A stretch of 41,416 nt of DNA, from NCBI GenBank assembly GCA_001940825.1, contig MSGT01000023.1, positions 1 to 41,416 on the forward strand, read 5' to 3'. How positions within the stretch are numbered: position 1 is the stretch's first letter; every line of letters starts with the position of its first letter. The position numbers and the translations under genes are program-made. This document shows positions 46-23,841 of the stretch, one piece after another. Under the pieces are notes generated by a model, which did not search any database, had not been told where the DNA came from, and saw only the letters and a program-made list of their open reading frames with translations. Source of the stretch: Sphaerochaeta sp. Phil3. Lineage in GTDB: Bacteria > Spirochaetota > Spirochaetia > Sphaerochaetales > Sphaerochaetaceae.

Positions 46-1563
46 CTATCGCTTGAAGTTCACCGTCTGGTTCACAAGCATCTGTATCTGGGCTCCGGTC
101 CTGACCTTTATCGTGGGCTGCATGTTGGCCCACCTGGACGTATACTGCATTCCGAAGTTTGCGGTGGTGTCCAGAGCGGAGTCCGTCAGAGCGCCCGCCG
201 CACCTGAGATGTACTCGTTGCCTATCGTCTGGGCGGCATTGTCCACGGTGCTTCCTATGGTGTTGGCTCCGTAGTTTATTATCGACCCCAGCACTGCGCC
301 TCCAAGGATTGCCCAGAAGTGGTTGTTGACCTTCCCCTCCACGCCGGAGTAGCCCTCCTGGGACACGCCCTGGAAACCCGGAAGCGTATAGACATACCCA
401 TCGGGCGTTATGAGCTGCGTCCATGCGACCTGGATCGACTTCTGTCCGAACGTGACCGAGCTGTTGTAGCTCGCCATCACTCGGGATCCCTTTGGAATGA
501 GCACCACCGAACCCGTAAGCGTGTCGTAGACGTCCTGTCTGACAAGACCGACCACATCGCCAGGAAGGTCCGTGTTGATTCCTGTCACCAGCGTTATCGG
601 TATCACGGTTCCCGCCACCAGATCGTACTTTGTGACCTTTCCCTTGTATCCTGCATCCTCCGTCCTCTGACCCTCAAGCCAGGAGCTCTTCTCGCTCTGT
701 CTGTTGGCGTTTTCCCAACTGGAGGACGAGGTTCCGGACGACCCGGAGAGGGCCGAAAGCGTCTCGACCATCGCATTGAGGCTATCGGTCGGATCGGACT
801 CCTGCATCCAGGACGGGTATTCGTAGGACGAAGAGCCTGTATCCGTGATGGACGTCGGAGCCTCGGTGCCGCCGAGCTTCTCGACCGTGACCGATACGCT
901 TTTCGGGCTTTCCTCCTCCTGTTTGGCGGATGCCTGCATTATGGATTCTATGACCCCTTCGTCGTCATCGTACATCCAAAGCATGGTGTACACGTCCCCG
1001 AGGGTGGATCCCAGTCCATAGACCTGTCCCACGAAGTCCTCGTAGGGTATGGCCATCTCGTCCAGAAGCGCACGCAGCGCTTCGTCGTTGGTCAGCTCCT
1101 TGGTCTCTGCGGGTGTGGGCTCATCCTTGGGAAGCCTATCCTCCAGTCCGGCGAGGGCCATCGAGGCCTGCCCGTCGGTCTTCATCACCGAAAGGGCCTG
1201 TTCGAGGGCCTGGGCCCGTTCGTCGCCCTGGACGGAACCTGTCACCTGCCCCGTCTCGGAGACGTATGAGACGTTCCCCGCAGAATCGACCCTGATGCGG
1301 GTGGATCCATCGGTGAGGACGATGTAGTCCGCTCCCGTATCATAGGTCTTCTCCTGCGAGGGGTCGTAGTATTTGATCGTGGATGGAACCATAGGGGTCG
1401 TCACCGCCTCGGGCATCGTCTCGGCCTTGGGCTTGGACCTGACGGCTCTGAATATCAACACAGCCGCCAGAAGCACTACAAAGACCGCCCCGATAATCAT
1501 CGCCTTCTTCAGCAGCCCGCCCTTGTCCAGGCGCTGGACCTCGCTGTATGTTCCCTTGGCCAT
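46..1563 (-). CDS. virB10: VirB10/TrbI-type T4SS core-complex protein
   Basis: A 505-residue protein with a short cytoplasmic N-terminus, one membrane segment at about residues 19-41, a long low-complexity periplasmic linker rich in Ser, Glu and Thr, and a C-terminal beta-barrel domain from about residue 305. The C-terminal part shows typical VirB10/TrbI features: AGTVIPITLVTGINTDLPG, IPKGSRVMASYNSSV, then a glycine-rich hydrophobic stretch near GGAVLGSIINYG that corresponds to the outer-membrane antenna region. In this family the protein spans both membranes and transmits ATPase energy state to the outer-membrane pore. The ATG has a good ribosome site (GGGGAGG, minus strand). It is the last gene of the T4SS operon, 4 nt after virB9, and is followed by a terminator-like hairpin. 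Family assignment is firm; details of the linker are not conserved. Confidence 0.9.
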   Translation of the reverse strand: MAKGTYSEVQRLDKGGLLKKAMIIGAVFVVLLAAVLIFRAVRSKPKAETMPEAVTTPMVPSTIKYYDPSQEKTYDTGADYIVLTDGSTRIRVDSAGNVSYVSETGQVTGSVQGDERAQALEQALSVMKTDGQASMALAGLEDRLPKDEPTPAETKELTNDEALRALLDEMAIPYEDFVGQVYGLGSTLGDVYTMLWMYDDDEGVIESIMQASAKQEEESPKSVSVTVEKLGGTEAPTSITDTGSSSYEYPSWMQESDPTDSLNAMVETLSALSGSSGTSSSSWENANRQSEKSSWLEGQRTEDAGYKGKVTKYDLVAGTVIPITLVTGINTDLPGDVVGLVRQDVYDTLTGSVVLIPKGSRVMASYNSSVTFGQKSIQVAWTQLITPDGYVYTLPGFQGVSQEGYSGVEGKVNNHFWAILGGAVLGSIINYGANTIGSTVDNAAQTIGNEYISGAAGALTDSALDTTANFGMQYTSRWANMQPTIKVRTGAQIQMLVNQTVNFKR

Positions 1564-1567
1564 GTTT

Positions 1568-2704
1568 CTACCTCCCCTTCGTTATCCTGACCTGTTCGCT
1601 CTGTCCGGACTTGAGGAGTATCGTCTGGGACGACGTTATCACCGTATCGAGCTGGTAGATGTTTCCGATTATGCGGTAGTTCACAAGGGCCTCCTCCTTG
1701 CCCTTGAGGATGTACACGGAAGGAAGCTCATCGGTGTTCGCTACGCTTGCGGGAAGCTGTATGTAGGTCTTCTTGTCGTCGGAGAACACGTTCTGAGGCG
1801 TCCATGTGGGATTCCCCTTGGCCTTCTTTATGACGTAGTTGTAGTCCGTCTTCGAAAGGTCGAGCCTATAGAGGGATTCGTCGGAGACCGATGTGTCCTT
1901 CACGAAGTCGGCGAAGTCCTCCTGGACGAACCACCCCTCTCCGCTGTCCACTGGATAGTCGAAGCGGAATGCCGTCATGTAGCTGTTCTCGAAGCTCGCG
2001 ATCCTGAAGTAGTACGTCCTCTGGTCGGTGAGAACTATCATGGACGTGTCCAGCCCCACCGTCGTCGGCTTGATGAAAAGGTGCTGCACCGTCTGTCCGT
2101 TCTCGATGCTCGTACCCATCGTGAACTGCCATGAGGCGGAGTTGTTGTTGACTATGGGGCTTCCGGTGACGCTCTCCCCCGGCTTGAGTCTGAAGTCCGT
2201 TATCGCCTTGGGGCTGGTGATGACCTCGTATATGTTCCCTTCTATCCAGTCGTAGACGGCTATGGCCCCTGTGAAGTTGTCCGTGGACGTAAGGTACGTG
2301 AAGGAGTCGCTGGTGGCCTTCACTGCAAGCGCACCGCTGGATGTGCCGTACAGGGTGTCGTCGAGGCTCGTATCCGCAAGCGGATCGGTCTTGATGGCGT
2401 CCTGTATCTCCTCCTTCCTGGTCTGCTGTTCAAGGGTGGAGCTCTTGACCTGCTCCTGTCTGAACGACCTGTCGGCCTTCAGCGTCGTGATGTCGATCAC
2501 GGGGCTCGTCACAAGGTCCTCCGGCTCTATCACAGCTGTCAGAGGCAGATTGCTCTGGGCGTTCGTCCAGTCGGCTTTGTCCTGGACGTTGATTATCTGG
2601 ACGCTCGAATAGTCCGTACCGGACCCCTTCGCCGTCGCGCATGACGCAAGCATGCCAAGTGCAGCCAATGCCATCAGAATGGTCTTCGCAGTTCTCTTCT
2701 TCAT
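1568..2704 (-). CDS. virB9: VirB9/TrbG-type T4SS outer-membrane core lipoprotein
   Basis: A 378-residue protein beginning MKKRTAKTILMALAALGM with a lipobox-like LASC, so it is probably lipid-anchored. The middle holds the signature of the VirB9/TrbG/CagX family, IEGNIYEVITSPKAITDF followed by RLKPGE, and the C-terminal half is a beta-rich domain ending QVRITKGR. In this family VirB9 forms the outer-membrane ring with VirB10 and a VirB7 lipoprotein. No separate virB7 is seen, and the lipobox here may replace it. I chose the ATG at 2704 because the signal peptide begins there; the reading frame is open further upstream but that part overlaps virB8 in a different frame. It sits between the second virB8 gene and virB10 in the operon. 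Confidence 0.87.
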   Translation of the reverse strand: MKKRTAKTILMALAALGMLASCATAKGSGTDYSSVQIINVQDKADWTNAQSNLPLTAVIEPEDLVTSPVIDITTLKADRSFRQEQVKSSTLEQQTRKEEIQDAIKTDPLADTSLDDTLYGTSSGALAVKATSDSFTYLTSTDNFTGAIAVYDWIEGNIYEVITSPKAITDFRLKPGESVTGSPIVNNNSASWQFTMGTSIENGQTVQHLFIKPTTVGLDTSMIVLTDQRTYYFRIASFENSYMTAFRFDYPVDSGEGWFVQEDFADFVKDTSVSDESLYRLDLSKTDYNYVIKKAKGNPTWTPQNVFSDDKKTYIQLPASVANTDELPSVYILKGKEEALVNYRIIGNIYQLDTVITSSQTILLKSGQSEQVRITKGR

Positions 2705-2733
2705 AGTAAGGTTCCTCACAATTCCTTTCCGTA

Positions 2734-3381
2734 TCAGATATAGCTTCGGAGCAGGTCCGAATCCATGTATGTTATGTACATCCCCAACGGGTTCCATGTC
2801 CTCTCGTCCTCCGTCTCCGGTTGGGAGAACGAAGTGTACACCACGGCCTCGTACTGCCTGTCGGACATAAGAGAGCCGTTCTTGGCATCCGCGACGATTT
2901 CGCGCCACACTATCTTCCATGTGTTCGTTCCATACCTTGTGAGCTCTATGTCCTCATAGGGGACGTCGACGAGACGTTCCTGACTCAAAGGTATGGGCTG
3001 GTTGGCCGAAAGGTATGCGGTCACGACGGAGTACGCCTGTCCCAAGGACCTGTACGCCACGCGTCCTACGTCGTCTATGTTCGCCTGCTTGTCCGCCTTT
3101 ACGCTCCTGAGGCTCTGTATGAAGACCTTCAGGAACCTTTCCTGAGCCGCCGTAGGAGGAGTCCAGTCCTCCATCAGCTTGCGTCCGTCCTCGATCCTAA
3201 CGGCGCTTCCGTCGACGGATATCTCCGTGAAGGACACATCGCTGTAGGCCGAAGATCCAAGGCTGGCGCACAGGAACGCAAGGGACAACGCAAGGAAGGC
3301 CTCCACAATGATCACCAGAGAGATCAGGAGGACTCTTCCCCTATAGCGTATTTCGGTGGATGCCATTCCGATGCGCTTCAC
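2734..3381 (-). CDS. virB8: VirB8/TrbF-type T4SS inner-membrane protein, second copy
   Basis: A 215-residue protein with one N-terminal membrane segment (about residues 16-38) and a periplasmic NTF2-like domain. It shares with the neighbouring copy (3378-4028) the blocks DWTPPTAAQERF, TWKIVWRE, SDRQYEA and NPLGMYIT, the last being typical of TrbF/VirB8. A GTG start at 3381 overlaps the upstream stop codon and has GGGAG 6-8 nt before it; the ATG at 3366 is an alternative with a poorer ribosome site. VirB8 proteins assemble the inner-membrane platform and recruit VirB9 and VirB10. Two adjacent, diverged VirB8 genes are unusual, and the pair may form a heteromer. The family call is good; specialisation is inference. 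Confidence 0.8.
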   Translation of the reverse strand: MKRIGMASTEIRYRGRVLLISLVIIVEAFLALSLAFLCASLGSSAYSDVSFTEISVDGSAVRIEDGRKLMEDWTPPTAAQERFLKVFIQSLRSVKADKQANIDDVGRVAYRSLGQAYSVVTAYLSANQPIPLSQERLVDVPYEDIELTRYGTNTWKIVWREIVADAKNGSLMSDRQYEAVVYTSFSQPETEDERTWNPLGMYITYMDSDLLRSYI

Positions 3382-4028
3382 ATCAGACTCCCTATGAGGT
3401 TCGTCTCGAAGTCCGTTATGTACATGCCTATCGGGTTCTCCCTCTTGCGCCGTTCGGTGTCCGGAGTATAGAAGGACACAGAGAAAAGCCCTTCGTACTG
3501 CCTGTCTGCGGTCATCGTTCCATCGGACCTGCGGTATGTCGTCTCCCTCCAGGAGACCTTCCATACGCTGTCCGAATAGAGGACCACAGACATCTCGTCG
3601 CTTGGAATGACGACGTATTCCGTCCTCGACCTATCTATGGGGTTGTTGTCCCCATACCACGACGTCACCAGCTCGGTGGCTTTGGAAAGGGACTTCGAGT
3701 ACACGGACGATGCATGGTCCTTGTTCACGTAGTTGTCGATGCTGACGCTTCTGAGGTCGGATACGTATCTGCTTATGAAGTACCTCTGTGTCGCATCGCT
3801 CGGAGTCCAGTCCCTCAGAAGGTCCACCGTGTTCGCATGGTAGTACGCCTCTCCGTCCGAGGAGAGCTCTATGACATAGGGCATCTTCTTCGGAAGGGCT
3901 CCCAGGTAGAACGCTAATGCCGCCAGCACAACAACCACCACCGCGAGCACCACCGCCACGGCCGTGCGTATCGCTATCGTCTGCTTGTATCTTGCTATCG
4001 TCTCCGCCGCTGTATTCCTGTTGTCCAT
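3378..4028 (-). CDS. virB8: VirB8/TrbF-type T4SS inner-membrane protein, first copy
   Basis: A 216-residue protein starting MDNRNTAAETIARYKQT, with one strongly hydrophobic segment at about residues 22-47 and a periplasmic domain. DWTPSDATQRYF, VWKVSWRE, TADRQYEG and NPIGMYIT match the equivalent blocks of the following copy and of the TrbF/VirB8 family. The start is 2 nt after the virB11 stop, and the stop overlaps the start of the second copy, indicating translational coupling. The NPxG block that contributes to dimerisation in VirB8 structures is retained. The two copies differ over most of their length, so the duplication is old or one copy was acquired. Confidence 0.84.
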   Translation of the reverse strand: MDNRNTAAETIARYKQTIAIRTAVAVVLAVVVVVLAALAFYLGALPKKMPYVIELSSDGEAYYHANTVDLLRDWTPSDATQRYFISRYVSDLRSVSIDNYVNKDHASSVYSKSLSKATELVTSWYGDNNPIDRSRTEYVVIPSDEMSVVLYSDSVWKVSWRETTYRRSDGTMTADRQYEGLFSVSFYTPDTERRKRENPIGMYITDFETNLIGSLM

Positions 4029-4030
4029 GA

Positions 4031-5392
4031 CTACTCCACCATCACATCGTTCTTCGCGTCCCAGAGCTCCACCAGCCTTCTCTTCGCCGACCCCGGCTCC
4101 CTTCTCATCTGGAGGACCACATCGACGGCCTGTCTGACCATCGCGCCCTGATCGCTCGTAGCGTTCCTGTTCGCAAGCTCCGTAAGCCTCGGAACGACGT
4201 CCCTTGCGCTGTTCGCGTGCAATGTGGACATTCCTCCAGGATGCCCGGTGTTCCAGCTCTGGAGCATCTCTATCGCCTGCTGCGGATAGCGGCACTCCCC
4301 TACGATTATCCTGGTGGGATTGTGTCTGAGAGCCTGCGCAATGGCCTCCGCATAGTCGAACCTGCCGTTGATCTCGGCGTTGAATACATCCGGCTGGGTG
4401 AAGACGAGCTCAGGCGAATCCTCCACGACGTAGAGCCTGTCCTCATGGTCGATGAGCGTCATCAGACTGTTGAGGACCGTCGTCTTGCCGGAGTTGTGGA
4501 CGACCATGTAGTCATGCATGCAGTAGAGGTTGTTTCCATCCACCATGAACCCGTAGTACATGCCGGACCCCGCTGGGACGACATCGAAGGGGACCATCCT
4601 GTTGCGGCCCTTTCCGTTCGGGTCGATGTACGAATAGTAGACCCTCATGTTGCTCTTCCATGAGCCGGGCCTTCTGATGTAGTCCGCGACCGTCATGTAT
4701 CGTCTTTTCATGAGAGTTCTGTCGACGAGGACAAGCACATGCCCTTCGTTGACGATGTACGGCATCCCTCCTCGGGGTCTTATCGCATACATCGGAGAGA
4801 ATCCCCTGTGCAGTTCGAGCACGGTCCTTGGGGTTCCGTCGTCGCCCATCAGCACATCGCCTTCGACGATCCTCTGGGAGGCCTTCGTCGTCCCGTCGTG
4901 CATGAGTATCATCTCGTTCTTCGCATGGCAGCCAGTGCCTCCGGAGATGAGGATGTTCCTGTATCCGACTATCGACTCCTTCAGGAAATCCATCTGGCCG
5001 GCCGTGACCGAACCGCCTTCGACAAGCGACTCGGGGGAGACGACCGTCTTGGACGGCTTTCTGAACGAAACCGAGACCCTTCGCACTGCGGGAGGCCCTA
5101 TGAACGAGCACCTGACGTTCAATATGGGGATTATCGCGACGAGGCTCTGAGCCTCCGCGGTGTTGAACTTCTTGGAGGAGTACGACGCAAGAGTCATGGC
5201 GGCGGACTCAAGCCCTTGGCTCGTGGTGCGGCATTCCACCCTTCTCTTCCTGTCTGAGTCGATCCAGACCGTACCGTCGGGATTGACCATTATGTCCGTC
5301 CAGTCGTCCTTCATCAGATATCCCCAGAGATCGGCCCCAAGGCTGACCCGGACCTCTTCGACGACCTTCTCGGGTGTAAGGTTTATATTCAT
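4031..5392 (-). CDS. virB11: VirB11 secretion ATPase, interrupted by a mini-intein in the Walker A motif
   Basis: The precursor is 453 residues from the ATG at 5392. A TTG at 5398 has a better-spaced GAAGGG ribosome site and is possible. Residues 1-154 are the VirB11 N-terminal domain and the start of the P-loop (GGTG). Residues 155-300 are an intein. Residue 301 onward resumes with SGKTTVLNSL and continues with YVVEDSPELVF, IIVGECRYPQQAIEML and the His-box GHPGGMSTLHANS, all typical of the VirB11/PilT/GspE family. Excision would restore GGTGSGKTT and give a normal-sized 307-residue ATPase. VirB11 is a hexameric cytoplasmic ATPase that switches the T4SS between pilus assembly and DNA transfer. 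The unspliced protein cannot form a P-loop, so activity should depend on splicing. The gene lies directly upstream of virB8, behind an 80-nt gap containing a GC-rich stem. Confidence 0.94.
   Translation of the reverse strand: MNINLTPEKVVEEVRVSLGADLWGYLMKDDWTDIMVNPDGTVWIDSDRKRRVECRTTSQGLESAAMTLASYSSKKFNTAEAQSLVAIIPILNVRCSFIGPPAVRRVSVSFRKPSKTVVSPESLVEGGSVTAGQMDFLKESIVGYRNILISGGTGCHAKNEMILMHDGTTKASQRIVEGDVLMGDDGTPRTVLELHRGFSPMYAIRPRGGMPYIVNEGHVLVLVDRTLMKRRYMTVADYIRRPGSWKSNMRVYYSYIDPNGKGRNRMVPFDVVPAGSGMYYGFMVDGNNLYCMHDYMVVHNSGKTTVLNSLMTLIDHEDRLYVVEDSPELVFTQPDVFNAEINGRFDYAEAIAQALRHNPTRIIVGECRYPQQAIEMLQSWNTGHPGGMSTLHANSARDVVPRLTELANRNATSDQGAMVRQAVDVVLQMRREPGSAKRRLVELWDAKNDVMVE
4493..4930 (-). other. 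Mini-intein (146 residues) within VirB11
   Basis: The insert begins with Cys (CHAKNEMILMHDGTTKAS), has an N-terminal Hint block including VEGDVLMGDDG, a block-B-like segment PYIVNEGHVLVLVD with the conserved His, and ends with a block F/G segment containing YYGFMVDGNN and DYMVVHN followed by Ser. Cys1, the penultimate His, the terminal Asn and the Ser at +1 are the residues needed for standard class 1 splicing. No LAGLIDADG endonuclease motif is present and 146 residues leaves no room for one, so it is a mini-intein that cannot home by itself. The insertion splits the Walker A motif between GGTG and SGKTT. Boundaries are exact from the motifs and leave both exteins in frame. Splicing itself is inferred. 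Confidence 0.9.
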
Positions 5393-5408
5393 ACGCAAAA
5401 TACCCTTC

Positions 5409-5478: not shown

Positions 5479-5916
5479 CTAGAAATCGGACTCTTCGAGC
5501 TTCTTCGCGAAGTCCTCAAGATACAGAGGGTCGGGACCTTCGGAACCGTACATCGCCACGGTCGCTTCGACCGCACGTTCGTTGCACCTCCCAAGACTCG
5601 CCTCGACCTTTCTGAGCATTCCGTCCGCCTCCTCCTTCGAGTATCTGGACATGTCCTTCTCCGTCACCCTCATCGCAAGGTTCCTGAACATCCCGTCCAT
5701 CCTCGCGGATATCAGCCTTTCGCCCAGAAGAAGGTTCGAGAGCATGTTCTTCACCTCCTCCAGATCCATCTTCAGCTGAAGGATGGAGCATCCCGCCGAA
5801 AGCGTCGAATCCTTCACGAAGTCGGTCATCGATTTCCCTTCGCCCTCTGCGAGCCTTCTTATCCTGTCATGCTCCTCTTTGGTGAGTCTGAGGCTCAGCT
5901 GCTTCATCTCCTTCAT
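5479..5916 (-). CDS. Ribbon-helix-helix-type protein, possible relaxosome accessory factor
   Basis: A 145-residue protein. The first 45 residues (KQLSLRLTKEEHDRIRRLA, then KSMTDFVKDSTL) look like an Arc/MetJ-type ribbon-helix-helix DNA-binding domain: a beta strand with alternating polar residues and two helices. The rest is predicted helical and charged, with a Met/Leu-rich segment that could be a coiled coil. Its ATG overlaps the stop of the virD4 gene (ATGA). In MOB-P type systems a small RHH protein of the MobC/TraJ sort often binds oriT next to the relaxase, and the position between virD4 and virB11 fits that role. A transcriptional repressor of the transfer operon is the main alternative. 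The RHH fold is fairly secure; the role is inferred from context. Confidence 0.66.
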   Translation of the reverse strand: MKEMKQLSLRLTKEEHDRIRRLAEGEGKSMTDFVKDSTLSAGCSILQLKMDLEEVKNMLSNLLLGERLISARMDGMFRNLAMRVTEKDMSRYSKEEADGMLRKVEASLGRCNERAVEATVAMYGSEGPDPLYLEDFAKKLEESDF

Positions 5917-8387
5917 AGTTCCATCTCCTCCATCGCGAACGCCTTCTCACGTTCGGCCTGATAGTATTGCAGCACCTCAAGCAACGCAGGGTCCTGCGAT
6001 TCGTCGGGGTATTCGCTCAACCCCATCAGATCCAATACATCCCTTTCGCTGAGATATGCATCCACTTCGTTCATCGAGTCCGCATCTATCACGAACGGGT
6101 CCACGGGTTCGTCGTCTATGAAGTCGTCCTCGCCCCTGGCCCTGGCGCCCGGCTCCTTCAGCTCGAACTCAGGCAGCGCTCCGTTGTACCCTACGAGCAG
6201 ATGCCAGCCCTCATCGTCGACCCCCACCCTGCGCAGGACTTTCCCTTCCTTGTTCCTTTCGACCGCATCGGGATGCGGTTGGTTCTCTTCGATGGACTCT
6301 TCGCTCTCCGGTGCGGGAAGCATCCTTCCCTTGTCGTCCAGATAGAGCCTTCTGAAACGCTCGTCAAGATAGTATCTGACCTTCTTGGCCTTGTACGGAT
6401 GCTCGCCGGACATGAATATGATGCAGTCGTCCTCCGGCATCGTCCTGATCTCCTCTGCGGTCATCAGCTCACGTCCGACCTGCTCTATGTTGAGGTTCGT
6501 GCTGTTGTTCGCGACCGCGAAGACGTTTCCGCTCGTCCCCAGCTTCTTCTGCCTTTTCGTCTCGTTGCCCAGGGTCTTGGATATCTTCTCGCATGTCTTC
6601 AGTTCGTTCACCCTGAGGATGATCTGCCTTGCGAAGTTGTCGGTGAACGTGGCTTCGCTCTGATACAGCTTCTGGAGCTGGTCGAAGCTCTGGATGACGA
6701 CCGCGCACAGAACTCCGTATCCAGCTGTCAGCGAGAGGGCCTTCTCGACGATCTCCATCCTTCCCATCTGATAGAACTCGTCGAAGACGAGCAGCAGCTT
6801 GTACGGGTTCTTCCTGAGCTCCCTCGTAAGCAACGTCACCGCCTGCTCGTACATCATCCTTATCAGAGGCATGAGCCTTTTCATCGAAGACAGCGACACG
6901 CACAGATAGAGGCTGATGGGATGCCTCACCCCGTTCTCGTCCACCACGCCTTGGACGAAGTCCTCCATCACGAAGTCGCTTCTGTCCGTGACGTCCTGGA
7001 CGTTGGGGTCCGCTATGACCTGAAGGTTGCTCATCATCGTCGATACGACGGACGAAAGCTGCCTGTCCTCGCAGTTTGCAAAGTACGCAAGGTCCTGCTG
7101 GAACCTCTCAAGGTTCTTCTTGTCGTCCTCGGTGAGGTACTGCATCGCTTCAAGCTCCACGCTCTCCCTCTCTTTTCGGGGAAGCCTGTACCTGTCCTCG
7201 AACCTCGCCCTCAGCTCCTCCCCCATCAGAGGCATCGATTCGTTGTAGAGAGCTGCGTTCTTGGCGTACCTTCTCAGATACTTCTTGACCGCACTCTCTC
7301 CGTCGTCCTGCTTCTGCTCCTCGGGCTTCAAAGCACCCATCCTGTCGTCCTGGACCGTCCCCTGGGGCATCTCCACAGGAGTGATGTCCTCGATGGAGGC
7401 CGTGAATACGGAGTAGACCTGTCTGAAGGTCTTCCTTTCGGGAGGCTCGCAGTAGACGACGTATCCGATCACCGCCGCAAGCAGCTTTCGGGCCTCGTTG
7501 TCCCAGAAAGGGTCCTTGGCGTTCTCGTTGTATGGAATGAGGATCAGGGCTAGGTTCTGTATGTCGGGTATGGTCTGTCTGCCCCTTCTTATCGAGAAGA
7601 GCGGATTGTAGTGTATGCTCTGCTTCGGATGCTCAGGTTCGAACTTGAAGGTGTAGCTGAACCTGGACCTGAAATTGGCGGATATCCCCCATCCCTCGGA
7701 CTTCGGGTCCAGTACGATCATGCTTTCGTTCCATTGGAACTCCGTCGGGATGATGACGCTGACGCCTTTCCCTGAACGTGTCGATCCGACCACCAGAGTA
7801 TGGTTGTTCCCGTTCTCGACAATGAGGTCGCCGGGGGTCTCCATTTCAAGGTCCACATCCTTGGGGGACCATTTGGCGAGCCTTGACTCGAAGTCGTCGC
7901 GGGACTCATCTTTCCTTCGTCTGGGTCTGCCCGACCTCCTTCTCCTGAACTTCGCATTCGAGGTCTGCCCCATCACGAGACCGGCTTTGTTCAGCATTCC
8001 AAGGTTCTCCAGTTCCTTCGTGGTCATCCATTTGGACGAACCATGCAGCGTCGTCTTTCGGTTGTACGTCAGCGTGCTGACCCTCGCGATGAGGATGTAG
8101 CACACATACCAGAAGACGGCGGCTATGAAGAACGGAAGCAGATATTTCAGCCCCAAAGCCAAATAGACCTCACCCGTGTGGTTGCGCACGACGACCCATA
8201 GTCCATGGAAATCGCACTTGTATATCGGAAGCGAGATCGGACCGACATTGAGTCTGACCACCGTCACCAGCCTGTATATCGCACCGGGCAGGACGTCCGA
8301 GCTGAGGCTCACCACGAAGCACTCGCTGACAAGCAGAATAAGAATCGATACGATGCCGTCCAGAAGAAACAGTCCAAGCTTCAGCAT
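5913..8387 (-). CDS. virD4: VirD4/TraG-type coupling protein (T4CP)
   Basis: An 824-residue ATPase with two N-terminal membrane segments (about residues 4-26 and 78-100). The Walker A motif VVGSTRSGKGVSVIIPT lies near residue 200, followed by the family-typical SMIVLDPKSEGWG. The Walker B motif LLLVFDEFYQMG lies near residue 530 and is followed by VVIQSFDQL. T4CPs are hexameric inner-membrane pumps that bring the relaxase-DNA complex to the T4SS. The last 120 residues are acidic (for example DDFIDDEPVDPF) and may recognise substrates. The ATG at 8387 has GGGGAGG 5 nt upstream and overlaps the end of the relaxase gene by 7 nt, so the two are translationally coupled. A roughly 70-residue charged insert sits between the two halves of the motor. 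The assignment is firm. Confidence 0.93.
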   Translation of the reverse strand: MLKLGLFLLDGIVSILILLVSECFVVSLSSDVLPGAIYRLVTVVRLNVGPISLPIYKCDFHGLWVVVRNHTGEVYLALGLKYLLPFFIAAVFWYVCYILIARVSTLTYNRKTTLHGSSKWMTTKELENLGMLNKAGLVMGQTSNAKFRRRRSGRPRRRKDESRDDFESRLAKWSPKDVDLEMETPGDLIVENGNNHTLVVGSTRSGKGVSVIIPTEFQWNESMIVLDPKSEGWGISANFRSRFSYTFKFEPEHPKQSIHYNPLFSIRRGRQTIPDIQNLALILIPYNENAKDPFWDNEARKLLAAVIGYVVYCEPPERKTFRQVYSVFTASIEDITPVEMPQGTVQDDRMGALKPEEQKQDDGESAVKKYLRRYAKNAALYNESMPLMGEELRARFEDRYRLPRKERESVELEAMQYLTEDDKKNLERFQQDLAYFANCEDRQLSSVVSTMMSNLQVIADPNVQDVTDRSDFVMEDFVQGVVDENGVRHPISLYLCVSLSSMKRLMPLIRMMYEQAVTLLTRELRKNPYKLLLVFDEFYQMGRMEIVEKALSLTAGYGVLCAVVIQSFDQLQKLYQSEATFTDNFARQIILRVNELKTCEKISKTLGNETKRQKKLGTSGNVFAVANNSTNLNIEQVGRELMTAEEIRTMPEDDCIIFMSGEHPYKAKKVRYYLDERFRRLYLDDKGRMLPAPESEESIEENQPHPDAVERNKEGKVLRRVGVDDEGWHLLVGYNGALPEFELKEPGARARGEDDFIDDEPVDPFVIDADSMNEVDAYLSERDVLDLMGLSEYPDESQDPALLEVLQYYQAEREKAFAMEEMEL

Positions 8388-9796
8388 CTTGTCCTCCCCA
8401 TGATCTCCCTTATCTTCTGTATGTCGAACGGACCTTCGGGCATCGAGTCTCCGAGGTCCTCGTCTATGTACTCTTCGCGGATATGTCTGATCCCATCCTC
8501 GTCCATCAGAACAAGGAGGATCCTGGCATCGTCTTCGTCCGGTCTCTTCGATGCCACGACCGAACACCTGTACGCCCCCTTCGTCCCTTGGACTGAATCG
8601 ACGATGCAGTCCGAAAGGTCCATTCCGAACTCCCTTGAGAACTCGGCCTTGCGGACCTTCTGTTCAAGGTTGCGACCGATGGCCCAGAACCCTTCCCTTC
8701 TCAGCCCCACGGAATCGGGGCCTATCCAATCGACGATGCGGCGCCTCTTCAGGGCCCTCAGTCTCTGGACGACCTCCATGTAGCCCTTGGGATCCATTGC
8801 CGCAAGCGCATGCTGGGGTATGGTCCTTCCGTATTTGGGATCCTCCCTGGACATGGCGAGGATCCTTCTGTCCATGTCGCAGAATCCGACCTCGCCGGCC
8901 TTCGAGGCGATGGTCCTGAGCTCTTCGTCCCAGTTGACCCTTCCCTTCTGTCTGGTGAGGATACGCATCGCAGCCTTCCTTGCACCGACCTTCACGAACG
9001 TCGATGGAAGCCTGAGAAGGCCTTTGCGTCCTTTTCTGGACACGACTATGTGCACGTGTGCATGCGCCGTGTTGTGATGCGTGACGGCGAACCATCTCAG
9101 AGGCTCCCCCAGCTTCTTCTCAAGGACCTTCATGAAACCGGCTGCAAGCAGACCTATGTCCACGCCTTGGTCCTCAGGGGAGAGGACTATCTTGAATATC
9201 GGATCCGAACCCACTATGTCGGAGCAGAGCCCTGGGGTAAGCTGGATGCGGCTGTCGCCGTCGTACGTGTATGCAGGCTCAAATGCGGTGGACCTCTCCC
9301 AGTCGGGGTTGTTGTCCACCGCCGCCTCCGGGCGCACAAGGTATCCGATGAGCCCTGTGTTGTAGGCGGTGTTGTCGATCCTGCCTTTGTCGAAATATGC
9401 AGCCAACCTTCCGGTTCTGGAGAACCTCTGGCCAGGCTTCGTGTATCCGATCCTCACGGTGCAGCGTCTCTGGTACGTCGACTCCCTGAATCCGGCCTCC
9501 TGTCTGGCCTGGGTTCTGGAGATCTTCCTGAACCCTGTTGGCTGTACCCTGCGCCCAGGAGCCGTCACCCCCACCGTCCAGACATCCCTGCCTTTCCTGG
9601 GGTTTTCCATGCGTGGAGGTGCGATGCGCCTCATGGCCGCCGACGGCCTTTTTCCATACGGATATGCGCTGACCCATGCAGCCGCCTTCGGGCACTTTGA
9701 CTTCGAAACGCCCTTGGTCCTTGCAAAATCGACGCCCTCCTTCAGAAGGACGCCTTCGCGGAGGTCCACCCCTCCGTTGAAACCTATGCCTTCCAT
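8381..9796 (-). CDS. Conjugative relaxase, MOB-P/DUF3363-like
   Basis: A 471-residue protein from the ATG at 9796, which follows GGGAAG; another ATG at 9808 is possible but has a worse ribosome site. The central part shows the relaxase three-histidine region THHNTAHAHVHI, preceded by FKIVLSPEDQGVDI, a layout seen in the DUF3363/VirD2-like relaxases of the IncP/Ti lineage. An upstream tyrosine-rich block (AAYFDKGRID, TGLIGYLVR) is where the nicking tyrosine should lie. The N-terminal 90 residues are very basic and probably bind DNA. The enzyme would nick one strand at oriT and pilot it to VirD4, whose gene overlaps its 3' end. It sits between virB4 and virD4, an unusual place for a relaxase gene. 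The oriT was not identified. Confidence 0.84.
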   Translation of the reverse strand: MEGIGFNGGVDLREGVLLKEGVDFARTKGVSKSKCPKAAAWVSAYPYGKRPSAAMRRIAPPRMENPRKGRDVWTVGVTAPGRRVQPTGFRKISRTQARQEAGFRESTYQRRCTVRIGYTKPGQRFSRTGRLAAYFDKGRIDNTAYNTGLIGYLVRPEAAVDNNPDWERSTAFEPAYTYDGDSRIQLTPGLCSDIVGSDPIFKIVLSPEDQGVDIGLLAAGFMKVLEKKLGEPLRWFAVTHHNTAHAHVHIVVSRKGRKGLLRLPSTFVKVGARKAAMRILTRQKGRVNWDEELRTIASKAGEVGFCDMDRRILAMSREDPKYGRTIPQHALAAMDPKGYMEVVQRLRALKRRRIVDWIGPDSVGLRREGFWAIGRNLEQKVRKAEFSREFGMDLSDCIVDSVQGTKGAYRCSVVASKRPDEDDARILLVLMDEDGIRHIREEYIDEDLGDSMPEGPFDIQKIREIMGRTRC

Positions 9797-9797
9797 G

Positions 9798-12140
9798 CTA
9801 CTTCCCATCCCTTGCTATCCTTTCCAGCTGGTAGGAATCCACGCAGAAATCCACGAGGGCCGAGCCTTCGGCCTGCTGGATGAAATAGTCCCGCTTGCGT
9901 CGTGCATTCCCTATGAGCTCGATTTCGCTGTCGGTCACACCCATGCGCTTGTACGCCTCCCTGATGGCCTCCGCACCTTCGCCCCTGAGTTCAGGGTTCG
10001 CAAGATATATCTTTGTATGACATGAAGTCAAAAACTCCTCCGGATCGTCTATGTCGTTTATGTTCTGTATGGCCATGACGACGAAGACCCGTTTCTTTCT
10101 GAGGGTCTTGAGCCATTCCTTTATCTTCGCTCGGAACACCTTGTGGTTCAGAAAGAGCCACGCTTCGTCCAACACCAGAAGCGTAGGCTTCGGGTCGGTG
10201 TCGAACAGCTCGTCCATGCGGGAGAAGATGAACGCAAGGGCCGGGAAGACCGCGATGTCGCCCATCGACATCAGGGCGTTCATCTCGATCATCGTCTTCT
10301 GCCCGAACGAGCGGTTGTCGAAGGAGTCCCTCTCGCCTCCGAAAAGGTGCGCCAGCAGCGCATTGTCCAATATCCTCCTCAGAGCGGGGATGGCCGGCGA
10401 GTCCGGATGCCGTCCGTTTAGCCTTTCGACGAACCTCTCCAAAGTGGGGACGCTTTCGTCCCAGGCGTCGACTACCTCGGCTATTGCTGCGGACACTTCG
10501 CTCGTGACCTCCGTCCCTGCGGCGGCGACCGTCAGCTCCAGCCACGATTTGGCCTCGTACGGCTTGGTCTTTATCCTCGAAAGGGGCATGAACGACAGAG
10601 GCGAATCCTCGGCTCCCGGTATGTATATCGCACCGCCTGAGCGTTCGCAGATGTTCCTGAAGCTCTGGTCCTTGTCGAAGAGTATCACCCTGGATCCGGG
10701 GTATCTGGCCCACTGAGACCCCATCAGAGAAAGGAACACCGACTTTCCGCCTCCCGTGGATCCTACTATGAACGTATGACCGATGTCGTCCTTGGGGCCG
10801 TTGAGGTTCAGATAGTACAGCTCCCTTGTGGAGAGGCGGCCGATCATGTGGGGCCAGCCGATGCCTGTGAGCATCTGAAGGTACTGGTCCCTGTCCGCTC
10901 CATGGTACACGCTCGTGAAGGGTACTATGTGCGAGATGTTGCTTGCCGTGACAAGGGGTCTCCTGCGTCCGGAGAGGCTGTCCCCCGGAAGGCTCGACCT
11001 CCATGCCTGGAAGTTCGAGTACATCGTCTCCTCTATGGCGTCGAAGCCCGTGGCTGCAAGCGATTCATGGACCCTCTGGACCTTCTTCCTGAGTCCGTCC
11101 ACGGTGTCGTCCCATACGAGGATGGTGCTCGTCATCTCCCCCAGGGTCTCCCCGTGGGCGAGCTGGACGAGGACCTCTTCGACAGCATTGGAGTCCACGA
11201 CGGCCTGTGTGTCTATGTTCGTGGACTCGCGTCCCGAACTCTGTTCGTACATTATGCTCTTCCAGCTCTTCTGGCTGGACTTGTACTGGGTGCGGAGCTT
11301 CTTCGCCTTGTCCTGGCTCTCCCGGTTGTTGTTCGGAATCCATCTGGTGGTCCATCTGAAACGGAACGGAAGCGTCAGCACCTGGGCCAGTATCCCCGGA
11401 TACGTGGCGCTGGGGAAGTCGTTGAGGGTGAGGACCTGAAGGAACCTGCCTCCGTAGGAAAGGGGTTTGCCCTTGTCCATCTCCATCGTGGACAGGAACT
11501 CGCTGAACTCCCCCATCCCCTGCTCCGGACACCTGTAGCTTCTGTACTCCATGTTCGTCACGAACTTCAGGAACGTCATTATGCTGTGTTCGGGGGCCGG
11601 CATACCTCCGTCCTCTTCGACGCAGCGCAGCGGTTCTATCACGGCCTGGGCCGTCCTCATCGCGCTCTCCATCTCCATGAAGACCTCGTCGGCCCTTCTT
11701 CTCGATTCCGGCTCTATGCCGTTCTCATCCAGCTTGACCGCCACCTTGCAGCAGCAGTACGCAAGGTTCACGAGGCTCTGCGTCACATCCGAGAAGAGCC
11801 CGATCCTATGCCTTTCGACCTCAAGGTCCCCTTCCGTCATGTTGATCTCACCCGAAACCTCCGGGTCTATCGCCATCCTGAGGGGGACCCTATGGATGCA
11901 GAACCAGTAGGAGCTCTTGACGTCCCTCTGTCCGTCCGTCTTCCTATGGAAGGCCTGTGCGACCGAACTGGAGACCTCCTCCGCCTGCACTGGAGAAAGG
12001 GACACGTCCGGATACGTCACATGCCAGCACTTGAGAAGGGACCAGTCCTTCGTGAGGATGGTCCCGTCACTGTAGAGCTCCTGATACGGAAGACCCTGCG
12101 CCACGGTCTCCGCCGCAGCCTTCCTGTTTCCAAACAACAC
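9798..12140 (-). CDS. virB4: VirB4/TrbE-type T4SS ATPase
   Basis: A 780-residue ATPase. The C-terminal motor domain has the Walker A motif FIVGSTGGGKSVFLSL near residue 460 and the Walker B motif LLVLDEAWLFLNH near residue 658, followed by VVMAIQNINDID, all typical of VirB4. The N-terminal half is the CagE/TrbE/VirB domain that binds the inner-membrane complex. VirB4 supplies energy for pilin extraction and substrate movement and docks with VirB3, which is encoded immediately upstream. The start is a GTG at 12140 behind GGAGGG; an out-of-frame ATG overlaps it. The stop codon is followed after one base by the relaxase start. Length and motif spacing are normal. This is one of the most certain calls in the window. 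Confidence 0.95.
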   Translation of the reverse strand: MLFGNRKAAAETVAQGLPYQELYSDGTILTKDWSLLKCWHVTYPDVSLSPVQAEEVSSSVAQAFHRKTDGQRDVKSSYWFCIHRVPLRMAIDPEVSGEINMTEGDLEVERHRIGLFSDVTQSLVNLAYCCCKVAVKLDENGIEPESRRRADEVFMEMESAMRTAQAVIEPLRCVEEDGGMPAPEHSIMTFLKFVTNMEYRSYRCPEQGMGEFSEFLSTMEMDKGKPLSYGGRFLQVLTLNDFPSATYPGILAQVLTLPFRFRWTTRWIPNNNRESQDKAKKLRTQYKSSQKSWKSIMYEQSSGRESTNIDTQAVVDSNAVEEVLVQLAHGETLGEMTSTILVWDDTVDGLRKKVQRVHESLAATGFDAIEETMYSNFQAWRSSLPGDSLSGRRRPLVTASNISHIVPFTSVYHGADRDQYLQMLTGIGWPHMIGRLSTRELYYLNLNGPKDDIGHTFIVGSTGGGKSVFLSLMGSQWARYPGSRVILFDKDQSFRNICERSGGAIYIPGAEDSPLSFMPLSRIKTKPYEAKSWLELTVAAAGTEVTSEVSAAIAEVVDAWDESVPTLERFVERLNGRHPDSPAIPALRRILDNALLAHLFGGERDSFDNRSFGQKTMIEMNALMSMGDIAVFPALAFIFSRMDELFDTDPKPTLLVLDEAWLFLNHKVFRAKIKEWLKTLRKKRVFVVMAIQNINDIDDPEEFLTSCHTKIYLANPELRGEGAEAIREAYKRMGVTDSEIELIGNARRKRDYFIQQAEGSALVDFCVDSYQLERIARDGK

Positions 12141-12149
12141 ATGTCCCTC

Positions 12150-12395
12150 CTATGGTTCCAGATGGACCTTCTCCTTCATCGCATCGATGAAGTAGAGGAT
12201 CCAATACTCGTCCTTTTCATACTTGGCCTTCACGAAAAGATGCCAGACCAGACCCAGCGGCAGAAGATACCAGAGCCAGCCTGTGGCAAGCCACACGACG
12301 AGCCCGATGACATAGCCGATGCACACGATCCTTATAGGAGCGCCCATCGAGTACGTGTGCTTCGTCAGCGCCTTCGCGAACGGACTCGTCCTCAT
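12150..12395 (-). CDS. virB3: VirB3/TrbD-like inner-membrane protein
   Basis: An 81-residue protein with a hydrophobic hairpin at about residues 21-54, split by a GWLWYLLP segment, and a charged C-terminal tail (KAKYEKDEYWILYF). Size, two closely spaced membrane segments, the short N-terminus FAKALTKHTYSMGAP and the position directly upstream of virB4 all match VirB3. The ATG overlaps the stop of the preceding gene (ATGA). VirB3 anchors VirB4 in the membrane and is essential in classical systems. Sequence conservation in this family is low, so the call rests on architecture and synteny. Confidence 0.75.
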   Translation of the reverse strand: MRTSPFAKALTKHTYSMGAPIRIVCIGYVIGLVVWLATGWLWYLLPLGLVWHLFVKAKYEKDEYWILYFIDAMKEKVHLEP

Positions 12396-12805
12396 GAGAC
12401 AACCCCCAGAAGAGCGAGGACCCCTACGCTTCCGAAGGCGACGACCCCTACATGGAGCAGGAGCTTCAGAAAGCACCTCTTCATGCCTTTTGGATTGCTG
12501 TCCTCGTTCATGTAGGCATGAAGCAGCTCGATGGCGAACTTGAGCGCAAAAAGGCTTCCGGCCACGACCCCGACTATCATCTGGTTGTAGAACGAGAACA
12601 CTCCTTTGAACGGGTTCTCGACGAGCGCGAGCCCTCCTGCGTTGGACTCTAGGCGGAACACCTGCGAATCCAGGGCGGACCTTCCATAGGACGGGGCGTT
12701 GACGCTGGTCGATGAGAAATCCTTGAAGCTGGACCTGCAGAATACGGGCGACGCCGCAAGGAGCAGGACCAGAAGCATCGCTGCGATGGACTTGGACCTA
12801 AGCAT
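12392..12805 (-). CDS. Second pilin-like (VirB2-like) membrane protein
   Basis: A 137-residue protein with a signal peptide (SIAAMLLVLLLAASPVFC), a polar 40-residue stretch, then two membrane segments at about residues 76-96 and 113-135 separated by a short charged loop (EDSNPKGMKRC). This signal-plus-hairpin plan is the one of VirB2 pilins and is shared by the next gene upstream, although the two proteins share little sequence beyond an N-PKG / N-LKK loop. The ATG at 12805 follows GGAGGAG. It is separated from virB2 by two stem-loops and overlaps virB3 by 4 nt. It may be a minor pilin or a VirB2 homologue used in another assembly state. A general membrane component of the T4SS is the alternative. 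Confidence 0.55.
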   Translation of the reverse strand: MLRSKSIAAMLLVLLLAASPVFCRSSFKDFSSTSVNAPSYGRSALDSQVFRLESNAGGLALVENPFKGVFSFYNQMIVGVVAGSLFALKFAIELLHAYMNEDSNPKGMKRCFLKLLLHVGVVAFGSVGVLALLGVVS

Positions 12806-12885: not shown

Positions 12886-13272
12886 TCAGAGCTTCGCCAC
12901 CACGGCTCCCGTAAGGCCTGTGAAGAAGTCCTTGCTCGCCGTACCGTCATCGGCCGTCACCGAACCAAAGACGTAGTTGACGATGAAAAGGAAGCTCGCA
13001 AGGATCGCCACATTGAGCACGAGCGTTCCGATGGCCTTCTTCAAAGCGTTCGGATCCTCGGAGGAGTGCCTTACGGCTCCGAAGATGTCCATTGCGGCCT
13101 TGATGAGGACGTAGCCTCCTGCGAAGATGCCGACGATGAGGTTGACGGCCTTGCTTACAAAGCTCAAGTCGAGCTTCGTGCCGTTCGTCTCAAGAGTGGC
13201 GGTTGCGAAAAGCGGTGATGCGAGGATCGCCATCACCAACATCACGAAGAGGATTTTCCTTCCCTTTGTCAT
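12886..13272 (-). CDS. virB2: VirB2-like conjugative pilin precursor
   Basis: A 128-residue protein with a signal peptide (KILFVMLVMAILASPLFATA, cleavage likely near ATA), then a first membrane segment at about residues 35-58 (VNLIVGIFAGGYVLIKA), a short polar loop with the basic sequence NALKKAIG, and a second membrane segment at 84-104. This is the standard layout of VirB2/TrbC pilins, which form the pilus with phospholipid. It follows the traF peptidase gene, whose product processes TrbC in the IncP system. The ATG at 13272 has AGGAG 6 nt upstream. Two strong stem-loops follow the stop. The C-terminal tail after the second membrane segment is longer than in many pilins and might be trimmed. 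Confidence 0.74.
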   Translation of the reverse strand: MTKGRKILFVMLVMAILASPLFATATLETNGTKLDLSFVSKAVNLIVGIFAGGYVLIKAAMDIFGAVRHSSEDPNALKKAIGTLVLNVAILASFLFIVNYVFGSVTADDGTASKDFFTGLTGAVVAKL

Positions 13273-15158: not shown

Positions 15159-15179
15159 GTGCATCCAACGTTTTTTTGG

Positions 15180-15208
15180 TTGACAAATACACATTATTTT
15201 CTTCTAAT
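15180..15208 (+). promoter_or_regulatory. abiE promoter
   Basis: A perfect -35 box TTGACA (15180-15185) is separated by 17 nt from a -10-like TCTAAT (15203-15208). TAATTT two bases further on is an alternative -10. The abiEi ATG follows about 33 nt downstream with an AAGGAG ribosome site. This is the most canonical promoter in the window, as expected for a module that must work in new hosts. Confidence 0.75.
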
Positions 15209-15217
15209 TTAATGTGT
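15189..15217. promoter_or_regulatory. Inverted repeat operator over the abiE promoter
   Basis: ACACATTA (15189-15196) and TAATGTGT (15210-15217) form a perfect 8-bp inverted repeat with a 13-nt spacer covering the -10 box. AbiEi antitoxins repress their own promoter by binding inverted repeats, so this is the likely AbiEi operator. Confidence 0.65.
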
Positions 15218-15241
15218 GACTGTCAAAGCAAGGAGAAAAGC

Positions 15242-21906: not shown

Positions 21907-23841
21907 CTAATTCTGTGAATTGTTTGCGTTCTGCATTATCGACGCAATCGTCTGCACCGTCTGTGCAGTCTGGTTCTGCGTCATCGAGCTCGAAGCCGAT
22001 GCGCCCATGGAGGCCCCTGTCTTCGCCACGTTGGCGGCTATCGTAAGGCCTCCCATCACGCTGTGCATCGACTGGGAGATGGCGTTCGACAGGCTCTCCT
22101 GTCCTGCGGATCCGCTTACGAGCGAGTTGGTGATCTGCGTGGACTGGAGCACGAAGTAGCACGGAAGATACAGAAGCAGCCATGAAAGCAGAAGGTCGCT
22201 GACAAGCGTTTCGTTGGCCGCATAAGTGGAATCGGCCTCTGTGGCCCTTCTGTTGTCCATGACCGCCACGGGGAACGCCTTGATGCGTGTTATGCAGTCG
22301 TCCTTGGACGGAAACAGGACCTTCTCCTGCTCCGCCACCGGGACTCCGCTTCCAAGCTTCGCACGGCAGACACCGTTGACTATCCCCATGTCCGAGCCGA
22401 ACACGGCGACGAACCTTGTCCTCGAAAGGATGTGTCTGGCCTTCGCGATGAAGTAGTCCTCCATCTTCGCGATGGCGTAGTCCTTGGGCTTGACCGTCGC
22501 CCAGTCGTTCGCATCCGTCCATTTGACTGTTGCGGAGGCTCCGCTCGCCTGCTCCTTGTAGAGCGCCGAGTCGTTGTTGTACATGACGACCTTGCCGCTG
22601 GAATCGGATGCGGTCCACGATGCAACCGCTACATAGTCGCTTCCCTGGGCGATGAACTTCATGTGCCAGGTGACATCGACGGGATCTCCGTCCCTGAAGG
22701 AGGCGGTCTCCTCGGCCACAAGCTCCACTGACGACGACATGGTGCTGCTTGCAGCCTCTCTGAGCGCATTCAGCGCATCGCACGCATTGATGCATGCAGG
22801 GACCACAAGCACGACTATCAGACAGAGCACGAAGCATTCCAGCAGGTTCGAGAACAGGCTGTAGACGCACTTTCTGGTCACATCCTTCAACGGCGTGAAC
22901 ACCGATATGGGAAGCAGCACCATCACTGCGGAGACGAGGACGTAGACTTCGACCACGTTCATCACGATGTGAAGTCCCGCCTTTATCGCCTGGAACCCGA
23001 GCACGAACTCGAAGACCAGGTATACGACACCAGCCAGAAGCTTGCCCAGAACGCTCGACGTCATGGCGGCGGAGTTCTCGTTGAATATCGGACTTGCGTC
23101 CCCATTCCAGGAAAGGGTCTCCATCAGAAGGGATACGTCATACATGAACTTGGCAGGCATGTCGAAGAGGCTGTCGAACTCGACCGGTGAGTATATGGAC
23201 GCTATCTTGAAAAGACCGTACCTTACAGCCTCGACGAGGAACGGAATGGCCGCGGCGAGGATGAAGAGCATCAATGTCATCGCCGCGCTCACGCCTATCT
23301 GTCTAAGAAGGGATGCATTCTCGTCGCGCGGTGCAATATAGCCGAAGACAGCCGTGAACACGACCTCGGCGGCGAAGAACACAATGAAGAGGTATGTGGT
23401 GATCGACCATCTTCTATGCTGCAGCAGCCCCCTTGCCGAATCGGTCTCCGATATGGCGAACTTCCCATCATACCCAGAGAAGCTCACAAGGGCCTGGCCC
23501 GTCCTATCGTCGGTCCCTGCGGCCGTGAACCCCGAGTTCGCATAGAAGTCCTCCGACGTCAGAAGGTAGTCGCCGGAGAACACGCCGTCGTAGTTTGATA
23601 CATAGTTTCCGTCCTCGTCTATTCCGTAGAACTTGGCGAGGATGTTGGGGAAGGGATGCACGGCGAGCACTATCGAACGCGTGGCCAATCCGTAGGCCTC
23701 CCCTATGCCCTGTATCGTCCTGCCTATACGGCCGACGGACGCATAGTCCTTGGGTCTGACGGCCTCGCTTCCACCATTGGCGAAGAGCGATGCGCAGCAC
23801 AGCATGGCAGCGACCGCCATGACGAGAAGCCTCTTCCTCAT
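21907..23841 (-). CDS. virB6: VirB6/TrbL-type polytopic T4SS membrane protein
   Basis: A 644-residue protein with an N-terminal signal-like segment (VMAVAAMLCCASLFANGGSEA), a 130-residue polar domain, then several membrane segments (for example TTYLFIVFFAAEVVFTAVFG, SAAMTLMLFILAAAIPFLV, VYVLVSAVMVLLPISVF and CFVLCLIVVLVVPACI). A 220-residue periplasmic loop precedes a last membrane segment and a Ser/Ala/Gln-rich, low-complexity C-terminus. This layout fits TrbL/extended VirB6 proteins, which form the inner-membrane channel. It directly follows virB5 with a 4-nt overlap, the TrbJ-TrbL order of Trb systems. Sequence identity within this family is low, so the assignment depends on topology and context. 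Confidence 0.8.
   Translation of the reverse strand: MRKRLLVMAVAAMLCCASLFANGGSEAVRPKDYASVGRIGRTIQGIGEAYGLATRSIVLAVHPFPNILAKFYGIDEDGNYVSNYDGVFSGDYLLTSEDFYANSGFTAAGTDDRTGQALVSFSGYDGKFAISETDSARGLLQHRRWSITTYLFIVFFAAEVVFTAVFGYIAPRDENASLLRQIGVSAAMTLMLFILAAAIPFLVEAVRYGLFKIASIYSPVEFDSLFDMPAKFMYDVSLLMETLSWNGDASPIFNENSAAMTSSVLGKLLAGVVYLVFEFVLGFQAIKAGLHIVMNVVEVYVLVSAVMVLLPISVFTPLKDVTRKCVYSLFSNLLECFVLCLIVVLVVPACINACDALNALREAASSTMSSSVELVAEETASFRDGDPVDVTWHMKFIAQGSDYVAVASWTASDSSGKVVMYNNDSALYKEQASGASATVKWTDANDWATVKPKDYAIAKMEDYFIAKARHILSRTRFVAVFGSDMGIVNGVCRAKLGSGVPVAEQEKVLFPSKDDCITRIKAFPVAVMDNRRATEADSTYAANETLVSDLLLSWLLLYLPCYFVLQSTQITNSLVSGSAGQESLSNAISQSMHSVMGGLTIAANVAKTGASMGASASSSMTQNQTAQTVQTIASIMQNANNSQN

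What the first reader, a model, noticed from the sequence alone, without database searches (positions are those of the whole stretch)
4493..4930. Mini-intein splits the P-loop of the conjugation ATPase VirB11
The Walker A motif GGTGSGKTT is split between GGTG and SGKTT by a 146-residue in-frame Hint domain with Cys1, block-B His, HN at the end and Ser at +1. VirB11 cannot bind ATP until the intein leaves, so pilus and DNA transfer may be gated by splicing. No homing endonuclease is present, so the intein is fixed or moves only with the element. Inteins favour P-loops of phage and replication ATPases; one in a T4SS ATPase could act as a post-translational switch of conjugation sensitive to redox, metal or temperature.
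Basis: partly seen in the sequence, partly recalled or inferred. Interest (0 to 1): 0.85.

Follow-up and report, generated by a model that had tools for sequence, protein, structure and literature searches.

The report
Self-splicing insert in a conjugation motor
A bacterial DNA-transfer element carries a small self-removing protein segment (an intein) inside the ATP-binding loop of its motor protein VirB11; the insert is real and descends from a phage intein family that targets such loops, but that it switches DNA transfer on and off is unproven.

Summary
Window 4493-4930 (-) is a 146-codon in-frame mini-intein between GGTG and SGKTT of the Walker A loop of a VirB11/TrbB-type ATPase (4031-5392, -). 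Five uninterrupted relatives from the same family or class give the empty site. Pfam Hom_end_hint, solved Prp8/PI-SceI inteins and an AlphaFold model (pLDDT 93; best match the Cryptococcus Prp8 intein) agree. All residues invariant in 23 aligned relatives are present. This VirB11 is the only one found in the genome and sits in a nearly complete T4SS, so splicing is probably needed for function. No homing endonuclease is present.

The closest relatives are phage inteins: 57 of 75 interrupt the same point, G^[S/T/C]GK, of helicases, ClpX, RecA and AAA proteins, mostly with endonucleases. The best reading is an ectopic jump from a phage P-loop intein, then endonuclease loss. The redox/metal/temperature switch has no support here.

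No paper describing these was found in the library searched. The archaeal KlbA intein is a precedent in this superfamily, at another motif.

The parts
4031..5392 (-). virB11/trbB-type T4SS ATPase gene with intein (453-aa precursor, 307 aa after splicing)
   Evidence: TIGR02782 TrbB_P 6.4e-48, TIGR02788 VirB11 1.7e-33 (both below the curated cut-offs), T2SSE 6.3e-27
4931..5392 (-). N-extein, 154 aa, ending ...NILISGGTG
   Evidence: alignment with intein-free relatives
4493..4930 (-). mini-intein, 146 aa, CHAKNEM...YMVVHN
   Evidence: PF05203 3.8e-13; 23-member alignment; AlphaFold pLDDT 93.3 and Foldseek to Prp8 intein
4034..4492 (-). C-extein, 153 aa, starting SGKTTVLN (Ser+1), with Walker B RIIVGE and His box TGHPGG..TLHA
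   Evidence: alignment
3378..4028 (-). VirB8, directly downstream of virB11
   Evidence: PF04335 3.4e-23
2734..3564 (-). second VirB8-like protein (start uncertain)
   Evidence: PF04335 4.7e-14
1568..2707 (-). VirB9/CagX
   Evidence: PF03524 1.3e-41
46..1563 (-). VirB10/TrbI
   Evidence: PF03743 2.9e-50
5913..8567 (-). VirD4 coupling protein (true start probably downstream of the listed GTG)
   Evidence: PF02534 1.5e-82
8381..9808 (-). MobA/VirD2-type relaxase
   Evidence: PF03432 1.7e-5
9798..12140 (-). VirB4/TrbE ATPase
   Evidence: tblastn to plasmid TrbE 1e-78
12150..12476 (-). VirB3-like
   Evidence: PF05101 3e-4, just below the curated cut-off
12886..13272 (-). VirB2-like pilin candidate
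   Evidence: position and small membrane-protein look only; weak DUF3382 hit
21907..23841 (-). VirB6/TrbL-like
   Evidence: PF04610 4.4e-4, below the curated cut-off

Best explanation
A class 1, cis-splicing mini-intein of the Prp8/PI-SceI (Hom_end_hint) type interrupts the Walker A loop of the only VirB11 ATPase found in this genome. The gene is translated as a 453-aa precursor that cannot form its P-loop. The intein then folds, C1 attacks the bond to the preceding Gly, S+1 takes over the N-extein, N146 cyclises, and the 307-aa ATPase is released with a restored GGTGSGKTT loop and can work in the T4SS. It descends from a phage-borne intein lineage that inserts at G^[S/T/C]GK of many different P-loop proteins. 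It reached virB11 by an ectopic event at a similar P-loop-coding site and later lost its endonuclease, so it now travels only with the element. Shown: anatomy, empty site, family, intact catalytic residues, same-site phage relatives. Inferred: splicing itself, and the direction and route of transfer.
For: Exact in-frame insert against uninterrupted relatives; Hint family and fold; all invariant family residues present; only VirB11 found in the genome, with intact Walker B and His box and intact neighbouring T4SS genes; 57 of 75 phage relatives with both junctions readable lie at the same G^[STC]GK point and 13 more at GK^[ST], in SF2 helicases, ClpX, RecA, AAA and DnaB-like hosts, many with LAGLIDADG; 46-47% best identity to HEN-bearing phage inteins; 17 of 21 bases around the insertion point match the best phage site, L141; no other Hom_end_hint and no LAGLIDADG_3 in the genome; only 1 other genome of 393 in the phylum sample scores over the family cut-off, and it is a different Hint protein.
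Against: No splicing data. The tree does not place the intein within the phage set (long branches, weak support), so the donor is unknown. GC and GC3 match the exteins (56/79% against 59/78%), so composition gives no sign of recent transfer. No close relative of the element itself was found, so the age of the insertion is unknown.
Confidence: 0.87

Rival explanations
1. The intein is a conditional switch: splicing is slow or stress-sensitive, so VirB11 activity and DNA transfer are gated after translation.
For: P-loop mini-inteins can be redox switches (M. smegmatis DnaBi1, PMC6195587). Other transfer motors carry P-loop inteins too. A group II intron in a relaxase gene restrains conjugation (PMC6003770).
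Against: No regulatory feature seen. Only two Cys (C1, C137). Selfish persistence explains the pattern, and no close relative exists to show purifying retention.
Confidence: 0.12
2. A dead or slow intein: VirB11 is not restored and the element no longer transfers by itself.
For: Loss of the endonuclease is often followed by decay (own knowledge); the element was found in one contig only.
Against: All family-invariant residues intact, open frame, other T4SS genes intact.
Confidence: 0.07
3. A non-splicing Hint domain or an assembly chimera rather than an intein.
For: Single contig, no second isolate; other Hint proteins of the phylum are not P-loop inteins.
Against: Exact junctions, C1/HN/S+1, and the same insertion point as phage inteins; a chimera would hardly fall in frame at this point.
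Confidence: 0.02

Closest known systems
Phage P-loop inteins of the Hom_end_hint family (SF2 helicase, terminase, ClpX, RecA hosts), e.g. L125, L127, Agarilytica plasmid helicase (H23)
   Same: Same Hint family, same CHA.. start in most, same N..H block B, same insertion point G^[STC]GK
   Different: Most carry a LAGLIDADG endonuclease and sit in phage replication or packaging proteins; here the host is a T4SS motor and there is no endonuclease
Cryptococcus Prp8 mini-intein (6MX6, 6MWY) and PI-SceI
   Same: Best sequence and fold matches among solved inteins; the Prp8 intein is also a mini-intein
   Different: Eukaryotic hosts, other insertion sites
M. smegmatis DnaBi1 P-loop mini-intein (PMC6195587)
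   Same: Mini-intein in a P-loop; a P-loop Ser serves as the +1 residue
   Different: Class 3 chemistry, replicative helicase host, shown redox response
Archaeal KlbA intein (2JMZ, class 2)
   Same: Endonuclease-free intein in an ATPase that shares the VirB11/TadA-superfamily NTGHDG motif
   Different: Ala1 class 2; sits in the NTGHDG (His-box) motif, not Walker A; unrelated intein sequence; not a conjugation system
Class-3-like inteins in plasmid transfer/secretion motors found here (IncC TraD L224; DotL-type L228, L232; coupling protein L231; VirB4-like L229; TadA-like L223)
   Same: Walker A of a DNA-transfer or secretion ATPase is interrupted
   Different: Non-Cys1, HxW/Cys/THN motifs, site GK^T, mostly with endonuclease; no significant similarity to the window intein

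Membership tests
Intein, class 1 | Hint (HINT) fold / splicing-domain profile | tested here: met
   PF05203 3.8e-13; AlphaFold and Foldseek to Prp8 intein
Intein, class 1 | Cys/Ser1, block-B His, C-terminal His-Asn, Cys/Ser/Thr+1 | tested here: met
   C1, H64, H145-N146, S+1
Intein, class 1 | Block-B TxxH (usual but not universal) | tested here: not met
   NxxH; but the Asn is invariant in 23 same-family inteins, so it is a subfamily trait
Intein, class 1 | In-frame insert with uninterrupted host homologues at the same point | tested here: met
   five relatives; contiguous P-loop by pattern in 78 of 80 genome contigs relatives, one more contiguous by eye
Intein, class 1 | Self-excision with ligation | not testable with these tools
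   needs expression
Homing (mobile) intein | Homing endonuclease domain | tested here: not met
   146 aa, no LAGLIDADG or Hom_end match
VirB11/TrbB ATPase | T2SSE fold with Walker A, Walker B, His box; T4SS neighbours | tested here: met
   NCBIfam scores of the interrupted precursor are below equivalog cut-offs
Conditional protein-splicing switch | Splicing rate changes with a physiological signal | not testable with these tools
   no experiment

The most novel reading that the evidence does not exclude
DNA-transfer motors (VirB11/TadA, VirD4/TraD/DotL, VirB4) are a recurrent, overlooked home of P-loop inteins from at least two unrelated intein classes, and the inteins are kept because splicing delays or conditions motor activation and so tunes horizontal transfer.
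Probability: 0.13. Interest if true: 0.8.

Novelty: new member of a known kind. Interest (0 to 1): 0.52.

Why it matters
It adds the conjugation motor VirB11 to the hosts of P-loop inteins and links it to a phage intein pool that uses the same point in very different ATPases. With the TraD, DotL, VirB4-like and TadA-like cases found alongside, it makes a clear question testable: are transfer ATPases just easy P-loop targets, or does protein splicing set when DNA-transfer machines switch on? It also warns annotators: such genes are easily missed (several of the plasmid cases have no gene listed in the table used).

Tried and rejected
A tree of 66 inteins did not place the window intein (weak support, long branches), so no donor is named. 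The G123, G134 and G528 hits in the phylum are other Hint proteins, not P-loop inteins. L047, L102, L076 and L115 seemed to align into the intein but are ordinary uninterrupted TadA/CpaF-type proteins. First genome contigs and viral-contig scans with the precursor found nothing. A mixed alignment of the precursor with TadA proteins misaligned, so the precursor was not modelled. No exact terminal overlap, so circularity of the contig is unproven. The host could not be named from the tools used. Paper searches for intein with VirB11, type IV secretion, conjugative plasmid, TraD and conjugal transfer gave no description of such an intein; only open-licence papers are held.

Full report
Observation. 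The minus-strand ORF 4031-5398 encodes 455 codons (453 from the ATG at 5392). Its two halves match TrbB/VirB11 ATPases (T2SSE 6.3e-27, TrbB_P 6.4e-48, VirB11 1.7e-33). The Walker A loop reads ISGGTG, then 146 residues from CHAKNEM to YMVVHN, then SGKTTVLN. The insert is window 4493-4930, exactly as reported. Five relatives from the same family or class have GxTG and xGKTT joined, and the alignment has a single gap of C1..N146 there. Of 80 further VirB11/TadA relatives in named genomes, 78 have a contiguous P-loop by pattern search and one more by eye. Mature length is 307 aa.

Is it an intein? The insert alone matches Pfam Hom_end_hint at 3.8e-13 and solved Prp8 inteins at about 1e-9, including both the N-terminal blocks and the C-terminal YYGFMVDGNNLYCMHDYMVVHN block. 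A profile of the family finds PI-SceI and Prp8 inteins at 1e-43 to 1e-23. AlphaFold gives pLDDT 93.3, and the best fold match is the C. gattii Prp8 intein, TM 0.82/0.91. In 23 aligned inteins the invariant columns are C1, G24, D25, M28, G29, R35, V37, G43, N61, H64, L66, G127, H145, N146, and all are present. The usual block-B Thr is Asn in all of them, so this is a subfamily mark. Block-F D140 and S+1 are present too. That it splices is inferred, not shown.

Is the host gene alive? No other VirB11 was found in the genome. Walker B (RIIVGE) and the His box (TGHPGG..TLHA) are intact. Around it lie VirB10, VirB9, two VirB8, VirD4, a relaxase and VirB4, with weaker hits for VirB3 and VirB6. The frame is open and the composition of the intein equals that of the exteins (GC3 79 against 78%).

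Where does it come from? Within the phylum sample the family is nearly absent: of 393 genomes only one other is over the cut-off, and that is a different Hint protein. In viral contigs 451 relatives were found and the best 80 kept. Of 75 with both junctions readable, 57 interrupt G^[STC]GK, the same point as here, and 13 interrupt GK^[ST]; 65 of the 75 are endonuclease-sized and 10 are mini-inteins. The hosts are not one family: SF2 helicases, ClpX, RecA, an AAA protein and a Toprim/DnaB-like helicase in the ten scanned. On plasmids, relatives lie in Acinetobacter terminases and an Agarilytica helicase (PTG^SGKT). So this is a lineage whose target is the P-loop itself. The DNA around the virB11 site matches the best phage site at 17 of 21 bases; that partly reflects shared protein sequence and is not proof. 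The most economical account is an ectopic jump from a phage P-loop intein into virB11 and later loss of the endonuclease. The donor is not identified. No LAGLIDADG_3 match exists in the genome, so mobility in trans is unlikely.

Function. The precursor cannot have a formed P-loop, so splicing should be needed for activity; PMC6195587 cites the P. horikoshii RadA P-loop intein as disrupting ATPase function. Whether this gates transfer is open. Conditional splicing is known for the P-loop mini-intein DnaBi1 (PMC6195587), and an intervening group II intron in a relaxase gene restrains conjugation (PMC6003770). Nothing in this sequence predicts a sensor: two cysteines, no special motif. Constitutive splicing of a selfish remnant is the simpler reading.

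Other transfer motors. Searching plasmids with an endonuclease-bearing phage relative showed further cases, none with significant similarity to the window intein and with class-3-like marks: no Cys1, H-x-W in block B, a Cys in block F, THN^T at the end (class assignment by motif and own knowledge). They are IncC TraD (L224, pKAZ5: GSGK^A, 369 aa; present in 6 plasmids while about 970 carry this TraD; broken by an IS in one); a TadA-like secretion ATPase of Miltoncostaea oceani (L223, GAGK^A, 338 aa); DotL-type coupling proteins of a Methylorubrum megaplasmid (L232), of six Xanthomonas plasmids (L228, a 145-aa mini-intein) and of two Pseudomonas plasmids (55-56% identical inteins); a coupling protein of a Brachybacterium plasmid (L231); and a VirB4-like protein of Bifidobacterium longum plasmids (L229). 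A Curtobacterium VirB4-like protein has one at another site (L230). In the Xanthomonas, IncC, Miltoncostaea, Bifidobacterium and Curtobacterium cases the host family is supported by Pfam; for L231 and L232 by reading the sequence only.

Comparison with the known. Inteins in P-loops are common: about 70% of inteins are in ATP-binding proteins (PMC5050341). An intein in an ATPase of the VirB11 superfamily is known in archaea: the solved M. jannaschii KlbA precursor (2JMZ) begins MNTGHDG^A, which is the NTGHDG motif seen in VirB11/TadA proteins; it is class 2 (PMC4031507) and sits at a different motif. That KlbA belongs to this superfamily rests on this motif and on own knowledge. No paper describing an intein in VirB11, TraD or a T4SS motor was found. 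The window case is therefore a new host and site for a known kind of element.

Verdict. The regulatory interpretation is a hypothesis without evidence. The added value is the phage P-loop lineage and the recurrence of inteins in transfer motors.

Noticed in passing
L224 (pKAZ5, KR827394.1) 2635-3741 and five other IncC plasmids: Class-3-like, endonuclease-bearing intein in Walker A of TraD (990-aa precursor, 621 mature), absent from most of about 970 plasmids with this TraD; in E. coli p1902-010-1 the gene is also cut by an IS3-family element.
   Followed up: partly
L228 3498-3932; hits H229-H235: 145-aa mini-intein starting with Pro in Walker A of a DotL-type coupling protein on Xanthomonas plasmids; 55-56%-identical inteins in DotL of Pseudomonas savastanoi and P. 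syringae plasmids.
   Followed up: partly
L229 2792-4489; L230: Inteins in VirB4-like AAA_10 proteins: Walker A in Bifidobacterium longum plasmids (566 aa), after IIDPK in a Curtobacterium plasmid.
   Followed up: partly
L223 2956-3969: Class-3-like intein in Walker A of a TadA/T2SSE-type ATPase on a Miltoncostaea oceani megaplasmid.
   Followed up: partly
33200-36316 (+): Full-length DnaE polymerase carried on the element; a second copy at 53% identity lies on contig C26.
   Followed up: partly
37332-38813 (+), 38823-39824 (+): Caspase-like (Peptidase_C14) protein next to an HTH protein, possibly a defence or regulatory pair.
   Followed up: no
15176-16689 (+): AbiEi/AbiEii toxin-antitoxin pair.
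   Followed up: no
2734-3564 and 3378-4028 (-): Two VirB8-like genes in a row.
   Followed up: no
16844-21004 (-): 1386-aa protein with no family match in Pfam or NCBIfam.
   Followed up: no
40143-40961 (-): RpoS-like sigma-70 factor on the element.
   Followed up: no
L036 and L180: Phage SF2 helicases with two Hint domains each, one in the P-loop and one further on.
   Followed up: no
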